A stretch of 64,000 nucleotides of DNA, from contig NZ_CP026721.1 in NCBI RefSeq assembly GCF_004117075.1, positions 992,001 through 1,056,000 on the forward strand, written 5' to 3'. Made by a program: the position numbers and the translations under genes. Shown here piece by piece: positions 19,627 to 20,969 of this stretch. How positions within the stretch are numbered: position 1 is the first letter of the stretch; the number at the start of each line of letters is the position of its first letter. This stretch comes from Fervidobacterium changbaicum. GTDB lineage: Bacteria > Thermotogota > Thermotogae > Thermotogales > Fervidobacteriaceae. A model generated the notes under the pieces. That model worked only from the letters and a program-made list of their open reading frames with translations. It had not been told where the DNA came from and did not search any database.

Positions 19627-19670
19627 TTTGGTTGAAGCCAACGGAAACCAGCAATGGGGGTGATTTTCAA

Positions 19671-20969
19671 GTGAACATAAAAAGGGCATTGATAAGTGTC
19701 TCAGATAAGACGGGAATCGTTGAATTCGCCAAAGAGCTCCACAACCGCGGCGTGGAAATAATTAGCACCGGGGGTACAGCAAAGCTTCTCTCAGATTCCG
19801 GAATCCCCGTGAAACAAGTATCCGAAGTAACAGGTTTTCCTGAAATCCTTGGTGGTCGTGTAAAAACCCTTCACCCATTCATATTCGGTGCTATCCTTGC
19901 CAATTACGATGAACAGTCCCATATCGCAGACCTTGAAGAACATTCGATCAGTCCTATCGACATGGTCGTTGTGAATTTGTATCCTTTTGAAGAAGTTCAA
20001 AAACAAACGAGAGACGAAGATACGTTGATAGAAAATATCGACATTGGTGGAGTTGCACTCCTTAGAGCCGCTGCGAAAAACCACAGGAACGTTGTCGTTG
20101 TATGCGATCCAGCCGATTATCCAAAGGTTATAAAGTTACTAGACTCCTGTGGAGATGTCCCACTCCACGACAGAAGAATGTTCGCACTAAAGGCGTTCTA
20201 TTACACCATGAAATATGATTCCACGATTCACAAAGTCCTTTCCGAACTATTTGCTTCCGAAAAATACGAACATATGACCTTTGAAAAATTCTCCAACCCG
20301 CAGGTTAACTACGAAATCCTTGACAACGTCGATAAGCGATTCGTTAGGCTCAGCAAATACACAGAACAATCTACCGTAGTAACCTTAGGTGCGCTCGTCG
20401 TTGCACAAGAACCTGACTTCGTTATTGCCTTTAACGATTCTCTGCCTGTCTCCATGGTAAATTTGAAAACCTCTGGCGGACGGATATGCGACCTCGTAGG
20501 TTCTACAGTAGTCATGAGAAGACTTACAAACGATATGGTAAGAAAGCTAAAAGAAAGCACGTTTACCATAATATCATACGAGGAAGCTGAAGACGAAGAG
20601 TACGCACAAGAAGCACTAAAGGGGAAGGAATTAATAAAATTCACATACTTTTTCGAAAATTTACAAACTGAAAAAATCCCAATCGTTCACATGGTTGGAA
20701 ATGTGATGATAAAAAAACTAGTAAGCACCATGAACATCTATCGGTTACTTTTAGCATCAATGCCAAAAAACAGCTTGATAGCCGAACAAAATGACGGATT
20801 CTTCAAATTCGAAACATGCCCAACCAATATTATTGAAAGCCTTGAAAAACTCATTTTCGATTCTGAAAAAGCGATGATTAAATTAATTAACATCTATACG
20901 AACGCTGAAGTAGATAACCTTTTCACAAAAATATGCGGTGAACGTGGCATTAACATTTTCACTTTCTAA
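19671..20969 (+). CDS. purH: PurH-like protein: intact IMP cyclohydrolase domain, degenerate AICAR transformylase domain
   Basis: The start is GTG 19671 after GGGGGTGAT (432 residues). Residues 1-190 are a convincing IMP cyclohydrolase (MGS-like) domain: ALISVSDKTGIVEFAKEL, STGGTAKLL, GFPEILGGRVKTLHP with the catalytic Lys, VVVNLYPFE, ENIDIGGVALLRAAAKN. The second half has the length of the AICAR transformylase and faint echoes of it near the end (SLIAEQNDGFFKFE for the usual ASDAFFPF), but it lacks RYGENPH and the catalytic KHxxPCG, where MVNLKTSGGRI stands. It should therefore close FAICAR to IMP but probably cannot formylate AICAR. No other purine genes are near. Another route for the formylation step must exist if the cell makes purines. 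Confidence 0.75.
   Translation: MNIKRALISVSDKTGIVEFAKELHNRGVEIISTGGTAKLLSDSGIPVKQVSEVTGFPEILGGRVKTLHPFIFGAILANYDEQSHIADLEEHSISPIDMVVVNLYPFEEVQKQTRDEDTLIENIDIGGVALLRAAAKNHRNVVVVCDPADYPKVIKLLDSCGDVPLHDRRMFALKAFYYTMKYDSTIHKVLSELFASEKYEHMTFEKFSNPQVNYEILDNVDKRFVRLSKYTEQSTVVTLGALVVAQEPDFVIAFNDSLPVSMVNLKTSGGRICDLVGSTVVMRRLTNDMVRKLKESTFTIISYEEAEDEEYAQEALKGKELIKFTYFFENLQTEKIPIVHMVGNVMIKKLVSTMNIYRLLLASMPKNSLIAEQNDGFFKFETCPTNIIESLEKLIFDSEKAMIKLINIYTNAEVDNLFTKICGERGINIFTF

What the first reader, a model, noticed from the sequence alone, without database searches (positions are those of the whole stretch)
19671..20969. PurH with intact cyclohydrolase but wrecked AICAR transformylase half
The first 190 residues keep GGRVKTLHP, ENIDIGG and RAAAKN. 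The second half has the right length and a faint SLIAEQNDGFFKF echo of the usual ASDAFFPF, but lacks RYGENPH and the catalytic KHxxPCG. Either the domain has a new role or formylation is done by another enzyme such as a PurP-type ligase.
Basis: partly seen in the sequence, partly recalled or inferred. Interest (0 to 1): 0.6.

Follow-up and report, generated by a model that had tools for sequence, protein, structure and literature searches.

The report
Split PurH: cyclohydrolase with dead tail
In this heat-loving bacterium (Fervidobacterium) the usual two-in-one enzyme for the last two steps of purine synthesis is split over two genes far apart: the window gene keeps only the last step and a decayed tail, and it belongs to a family of PurH copies that relatives keep even after losing purine synthesis, which suggests a second, unknown job.

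Summary
Observation confirmed. The window gene (19671-20969, 432 aa, Fervidobacterium) has an intact IMP cyclohydrolase (IMPCH) half and no transformylase motifs.

The missing activity is explained. The same chromosome carries a standalone 307-aa AICAR transformylase with RYGENSH, KHQTPCG and ASDAFFPF intact, between purN and purD. PurP was not found; the rest of the de novo pathway is there. PurH is split over two loci.

The window gene also belongs to a Thermotogota-wide PurH paralog lineage ("PurH-II") that never has KHxxPCG. All four catalytic IMPCH residues are present in 12/12 PurH-II that are the only IMPCH of a purine-making genome, but in 5/29 that sit beside another PurH and 0/14 in genomes without the pathway. 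Yet 26 genomes lacking purL, purM and transformylase keep PurH-II, under purifying selection (dN/dS about 0.07). The best conserved segment is the helix linking the two halves.

So the window protein is most likely an IMPCH recruited from a paralog with another, non-catalytic role. That role is inferred and unidentified. Structure prediction of the decayed half was inconclusive.

The parts
19671..20969 (+). PurH-II: IMP cyclohydrolase with a decayed AICAR-transformylase half (432 aa, GTG start)
19656..19664 (+). Shine-Dalgarno-like GGGGGTGAT, 6 nt before the GTG start
   Evidence: read from the sequence
19671..20270 (+). IMP cyclohydrolase (MGS-like) domain, residues 1-200, with K65, Y104, D124, K136 (equivalents of human K66, Y104, D125, K137)
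20151..20288 (+). inter-domain helical linker, residues about 161-206, the segment best conserved across PurH-II including forms with both halves dead
20271..20966 (+). decayed AICAR-transformylase half, residues 201-432: no RYGENPH, no KHxxPCG, no ASDAFFPF, no RHFKH; dN/dS 0.07-0.20
20775..20829 (+). 'SLIAEQNDGFFKF' stretch and flanks: counterpart of SNAIVxxKDxxxxGIG, not of ASDAFFPF

Best explanation
The window gene encodes the only IMP cyclohydrolase found in this Fervidobacterium genome. It converts FAICAR to IMP with its intact N-terminal domain. It cannot formylate AICAR: its C-terminal half is a decayed transformylase domain. FAICAR is made by a separate standalone AICAR transformylase encoded about 570 kb away between purN and purD. 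So bifunctional PurH is split into two genes: the operon copy lost its cyclohydrolase half, and the window copy, from a different paralog lineage (PurH-II), lost its transformylase half. Inferred beyond this: PurH-II has, or had, a second, non-catalytic role (probably protein binding through the conserved inter-domain helix, perhaps as a nucleotide-sensing or scaffold subunit), which would explain why the tail is kept under selection and why relatives without purine synthesis keep the gene.
For: Shown by computation: intact IMPCH residues in the window protein and no transformylase motifs; standalone transformylase with all motifs in the same genome, 388 bits to T. maritima PurH 1zcz; rest of the pathway present (purF, N, D, M, K, E, C, Q, L); no PurP and no other IMPCH found; same two-gene arrangement in all near-complete genomes of both closest genera. 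In 12/12 PurH-II that are the sole IMPCH of a purine-making genome all four catalytic residues are kept, against 5/29 beside another PurH and 0/14 without the pathway (Fisher p 1.4e-8, not corrected for relatedness). Decayed half under purifying selection (omega 0.20, 95% 0.11-0.32 for the close pair G013/G015; 0.07-0.20 in others). For the second role: 26 genomes without purL, purM and transformylase keep PurH-II, with omega about 0.07 even where both halves are catalytically dead; the linker is the best conserved segment (mean identity 0.50 in PurH-II, 0.47 in the dead set, 0.39 in canonical PurH).
Against: No activity was measured. Direct profile comparison of the Fervidobacterium C-half with canonical transformylase fails (hhalign 0.3% and 10.5%); homology rests on collinearity and on the intermediate G030 (95.5% to the window type, 98.6% to canonical; full-length NF002049 match). 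AlphaFold models of the C-half were poor, so its fold is not shown. That PurH-II is a single clade is compatible with the data but not shown (AU p 0.163). No partner or function for the second role is identified.
Confidence: 0.88

Rival explanations
1. The C-terminal half is a relic on its way to deletion; the protein is just an IMPCH and has no second role. Thermosipho-like relatives and others have already lost the tail.
For: Sister genera g3 and g4 carry only the 200-aa IMPCH; the tail evolves faster than the IMPCH half (omega about 0.07-0.2 against 0.02-0.04).
Against: Omega is well below 1 in every pair with a usable dS, and the frame is open in all 9 long forms of the two closest genera. 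Forms dead in both halves persist under strong purifying selection in purine auxotrophs.
Confidence: 0.25
2. The decayed half is kept as a structural partner: it homodimerises, or pairs with the standalone transformylase so that the two gene products form a split PurH that channels FAICAR.
For: PurH works as a dimer, both domains contributing (PMC12605026). In Fervidobacterium and its sister genus the tail coexists with the standalone transformylase.
Against: Thermosipho-like g3 genomes have the standalone transformylase and a tail-less IMPCH, so the tail is not required for a split pathway. Many PurH-II with a tail occur without any transformylase.
Confidence: 0.3
3. PurH-II is a ribosome-binding or hibernation-type factor, as Methanosarcina PurH is when it bridges 50S subunits with aEF2.
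For: A PurH dimer with empty active sites bridging 50S subunits has been seen (PMC12605026, PDB 9ou7). The window's closest PDB sequence is that PurH, though this reflects only the shared IMPCH domain.
Against: The Methanosarcina case uses archaeal EF2. Hibernation factor HPF is found in nearly all Thermotogota, so there is no gap to fill. No direct evidence.
Confidence: 0.05
4. Residual or alternative transformylase activity survives in the C-half under a shifted active site.
For: None found.
Against: KHxxPCG absent under every alignment and in all tail-bearing PurH-II aligned; a transformylase with all motifs is present elsewhere in the genome.
Confidence: 0.02

Closest known systems
Bifunctional PurH / ATIC (TIGR00355, NF002049; T. 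maritima TM1249, PDB 1zcz)
   Same: N-terminal MGS-like IMP cyclohydrolase with all four catalytic residues; domain order and linker; C-half collinear with a transformylase domain
   Different: Transformylase half lacks every catalytic motif and is about 60 residues shorter; full-length models score far below cut-off (257.6 of 528; 269.8 of 402 bits)
Archaeal split PurH1/PurH2 (Brown et al. 2011, PMC3261824; Hunter et al. 2019, PMC6797443)
   Same: Separate genes for AICAR transformylase and IMP cyclohydrolase. Brown et al. say isolated PurH domains occur frequently only in Archaea
   Different: Here in Bacteria; the IMPCH gene still carries a decayed transformylase half and comes from a separate PurH paralog lineage
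ForH (PDB 6nko), standalone IMPCH-like domain
   Same: Single IMPCH-type domain; TM-score (by target) about 0.8 to the N-half model
   Different: ForH has no tail; its pathway (formycin synthesis) is from own knowledge
Methanosarcina PurH-aEF2 50S dimerisation factor (PMC12605026, PDB 9ou7)
   Same: Precedent for a non-enzymatic PurH role with empty active sites
   Different: Intact bifunctional enzyme in an archaeon; no evidence that PurH-II binds ribosomes

Membership tests
Bifunctional PurH (TIGR00355 / NF002049) | IMPCH catalytic residues K66, Y104, D125, K137 (human numbering) | tested here: met
   KYDK in the alignment; motifs GGRVKTLHP, NLYPF, ENIDIGG, RAAAKN
Bifunctional PurH (TIGR00355 / NF002049) | Transformylase motifs RYGENPH and catalytic KHxxPCG | tested here: not met
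   Absent in all alignments
Bifunctional PurH (TIGR00355 / NF002049) | Score over the curated equivalog cut-off | tested here: not met
   257.6 of 528 and 269.8 of 402 bits; only residues 2-206 matched
Bifunctional PurH (TIGR00355 / NF002049) | C-half has the transformylase fold | tested here: inconclusive
   AlphaFold pLDDT low in the C-half; Foldseek of the full model finds PurH but at 19-23 A rmsd, C-half alone no match at E<=0.001; homology supported through intermediate G030
Standalone IMP cyclohydrolase (PurH2) | IMPCH domain with catalytic residues, separate from a functional transformylase | tested here: met
   IMPCH residues intact here; transformylase encoded separately at G000:C1 about 1.58 Mb. 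Activity not measured
PurP formate-dependent AICAR ligase substitution | PurP (PF06849) in the genome | tested here: not met
   0 of 45 genomes of the order, controls positive in 3 archaea
Pseudogene | Relaxed constraint, frameshifts or stops | tested here: not met
   Open frame in all long forms; omega of the C-half 0.07-0.20
Thermotogota PurH-II lineage (named here) | Phylogenetic grouping with the other paralogs | tested here: inconclusive
   Groups inside a set of PurH-II plus 12 canonical rows (f3, f8, f5) at 100/94, apart from the other 18 canonical PurH; one clade of all PurH-II not rejected, p 0.163
Ribosome dimerisation factor (Methanosarcina type) | Binding to 50S subunits with EF2 | not testable with these tools
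   Known only from PMC12605026

The most novel reading that the evidence does not exclude
PurH-II is an old, phylum-wide PurH-derived pseudoenzyme of Thermotogota whose main conserved function is not purine synthesis but a binding or regulatory role centred on the inter-domain helix. Fervidobacterium and its relatives then took their only IMP cyclohydrolase from this family after the operon PurH lost its cyclohydrolase half.
Probability: 0.6. Interest if true: 0.75.

Novelty: new variant of a known kind. Interest (0 to 1): 0.6.

Why it matters
It resolves an apparently broken essential enzyme: annotation by similarity would call this a bifunctional PurH, while the two activities sit in two loci. 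More broadly, it exposes a family of catalytically decaying PurH copies kept by a whole bacterial phylum, including many purine auxotrophs. That makes a natural test case for how a metabolic enzyme becomes a non-enzymatic protein. Thermotoga-type genomes carry a small member with both halves dead (about 350-380 aa) that can be deleted or purified.

Tried and rejected
PurP as formylating enzyme: searched, absent. A second full PurH in the same genome: only the standalone transformylase was found. Direct profile-profile comparison of the window-type C-half with canonical transformylase failed. An earlier script seemed to succeed, but its f1 group wrongly included f10 sequences, so that result is discarded; reversed and shuffled controls gave 0.1-3%. 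AlphaFold with a 7-sequence alignment gave a usable N-half and a poor C-half; the C-half alone was worse (mean pLDDT 40.7) and its PDB search returned nothing meaningful. Deeper alignments from genome-search loci were not handed to the folding tool because its stated rule names other sources. Gene neighbourhood as a clue to function: comFC downstream in two families, glnA beside it in two others, different elsewhere, so no common partner. Replacement of HPF by PurH-II: rejected as motive, HPF is nearly universal in the phylum. Literature in the held library: no paper found on a PurH paralog in Thermotogota. Histidine synthesis as AICAR source: no hisF above cut-off in this genome or in the g4 auxotrophs.

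Full report
What is in the window. The gene at 19671-20969 (+) starts with GTG behind a good Shine-Dalgarno-like sequence and encodes 432 aa. Residues 1-205 are a strong match to the IMP cyclohydrolase (IMPCH) half of PurH, with the four residues reported as important in human IMPCH (K66, Y104, D125, K137; listed in PMC3261824) all in place. The remaining about 230 residues match no known family above threshold; Pfam's PurH model aligns only with its first 67 positions. RYGENPH, KHxxPCG, ASDAFFPF and the C-terminal RHFKH are all missing. The organism is a Fervidobacterium: a named Fervidobacterium MAG (UBA5837) carries a protein 62% identical to the window's and the same as that of G016, a member of the window's genus.

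Where the missing enzyme is. The genome (2.27 Mb, one contig, 99.9% complete) has one further PF01808 match, at about 1.58 Mb: a 307-aa standalone AICAR transformylase with RYGENSH, KHQTPCG, GGGQPSR, ASDAFFPF and RLFRH, 388 bits to the transformylase half of T. maritima PurH 1zcz. It lies in purF-purN-[IS]-transformylase-purD-purM; a second cluster at 0.92 Mb has purK-E-C-Q-L (the purC and purM scores are just under their curated cut-offs). PurP was not found in any of the order's 45 genomes, with positive controls. So the window protein is the only IMPCH found in a genome with the rest of the pathway, and PurH is split over two loci about 570 kb apart. All seven near-complete genomes of the window genus and both of the sister genus show the same arrangement.

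Is the C-half a decayed transformylase? Position and collinearity say yes, but direct profile comparison fails. The link is made by G030, of the same family, whose PurH-II keeps YGDNPHQ and a C-terminal VEPGGKYSPEEF...TGVTHYSF, matches NF002049 over its whole length, and scores 95.5% with the Fervidobacterium type and 98.6% with canonical transformylase (controls 0.1-3%). Structure prediction did not settle it. The C-half is not drifting freely: omega is 0.20 (95% 0.11-0.32) for the closest pair and 0.07-0.20 for others, against 0.02-0.04 for the IMPCH half and 0.04-0.09 for the standalone transformylase (simple Nei-Gojobori estimates, several pairs saturated).

A phylum-wide paralog. A survey of 103 Thermotogota genomes shows that most carry a second PurH-like gene beside canonical PurH. 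I call it PurH-II. Forms: 488-508 aa (f7, f10), 430-477 aa (window type, G030), about 440-520 aa (f8, f9), 350-380 aa (f3, Thermotoga-like), and about 200 aa without any tail (f1 g3/g4, f2, f11). No tail-bearing PurH-II aligned has KHxxPCG. In the tree the window protein groups with other PurH-II; PurH-II plus twelve canonical rows (the fast-evolving f3 and f8 PurH and one intact f5 PurH) form one side of a branch with 100/94 support against the other canonical PurH. A single PurH-II clade is not rejected (p 0.163) but not shown; long branches are present. Synteny supports part of the orthology: comFC directly downstream in f2 and in most f3 loci examined (not G034 nor the separate IMPCH of G033), glnA beside it in f9 and part of f10 (these gene names are my reading of the sequences).

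Use decides whether the cyclohydrolase is kept. Of 55 PurH-II aligned, all four catalytic residues are present in 12/12 that are the only IMPCH of a genome with a pathway, 5/29 that are redundant with another PurH or IMPCH, and 0/14 in genomes without the pathway; canonical PurH 35/35 (Fisher p 1.4e-8 ignores relatedness; the 12 come from at least two lineages, family f1 and G033). Y104 is replaced by R in f2 and f11, S in g4, P in part of f10. This supports real IMPCH use in the window protein and shows that elsewhere the family does not need it.

Kept without purine synthesis. Twenty-six genomes (20 at least 90% complete) from eleven genera in six families have no purL or purM above cut-off and no transformylase, yet keep PurH-II: G026-29, G032, G042-45, G050, G052-55, G057, G060, G063-65, G068-69, G072-76 (for order members also no purD above cut-off). 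Only G031, G077, G078 and G086 lack both. In one genus (g27) species with and without the pathway all keep it. Members dead in both halves show omega 0.07 (95% 0.05-0.09, G054/G055) and 0.08 (G042/G043). The best conserved segment in PurH-II is the linker (consensus about CGDVPLxxRRxLxLKAxYxxxxYxSxIHKxLSELFASEKFEH; mean pairwise identity 0.50, 0.47 in the dead set), whereas in canonical PurH this segment and the next 30 residues are the least conserved (0.39 and 0.38, other segments 0.44-0.54). From this I infer a non-catalytic role resting on that helix. No partner is identified; the neighbourhoods differ between families.

Mechanism. Shown by computation: split of the two activities over two genes; intact motifs in each; selection on the tail; retention in auxotrophs. 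Inferred: enzymatic activity of each part; that the operon copy lost its IMPCH half while PurH-II kept its own; the second role. A precedent for a non-enzymatic PurH exists: in Methanosarcina acetivorans a PurH dimer with empty active sites and aEF2 bridges 50S subunits (PMC12605026). It is a lead only, and HPF is found in nearly all Thermotogota.

Known or new. Split PurH1/PurH2 is known from Archaea, and Brown et al. state that isolated PurH domains are frequent only there (PMC3261824). A bacterial lineage with a split PurH whose IMPCH comes from a decayed paralog, and a phylum-wide PurH paralog kept without purine synthesis, were not found in the papers searched (only openly licensed papers are held).

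Noticed in passing
L161:7621-8631 (-), G000:C1 about 1.5806-1.5816 Mb: An insertion-sequence transposase gene (IS6/IS1-type zinc domain) sits on the opposite strand between purN and the standalone transformylase, inside the purine cluster of the window's genome.
   Followed up: partly
L062-L074 (Thermotoga-like genomes G032-G044): About 350-380-aa proteins directly upstream of a comFC-like gene in most genomes, without catalytic residues of either PurH half and with almost no Pfam signal (E 0.028 for L064), yet under purifying selection: an unnamed conserved family.
   Followed up: partly
G026-G029 (genus g4 of the window's family): No purD, purL, purM, transformylase or hisF above cut-off, but a conserved 200-aa IMPCH with Y104 changed to Ser in those read. 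No known route would supply its substrate.
   Followed up: yes
G030:C1:365175-372997: This member of the window's family carries a full-length canonical PurH that groups with PurH of family f10 (100/99) and a full-length PurL unlike its relatives: probable transfer of the purine operon from f10.
   Followed up: no
G019:C3:42622-44751: purD and purM matches both report a 729-aa open frame at adjacent places: a possible PurD-PurM fusion in one Fervidobacterium relative.
   Followed up: no
G033 (f3): C21:8786-9367, C30:2873-3547, C18:42610-42999: A second split PurH: short intact IMPCH, standalone transformylase, and in addition a fully dead PurH-II beside comFC.
   Followed up: partly
L015-L022 (Thermotoga-like PurH, family f3): The canonical PurH of this group lacks about 40 residues of the IMPCH domain (between HPEIFAGILG and VDLYPP) while keeping the catalytic residues.
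   Followed up: no
L116, L117, L118, L121-L123, L131, L132, L134: glnA (glutamine synthetase by sequence) lies next to PurH-II in families f9 and f10, an asparagine-synthetase-like gene further upstream in f10.
   Followed up: partly
window:13720-16843: Two tandem paralogous secreted or membrane-anchored proteins (569 and 438 aa) upstream of the gene, conserved as a pair in both closest genera.
   Followed up: no
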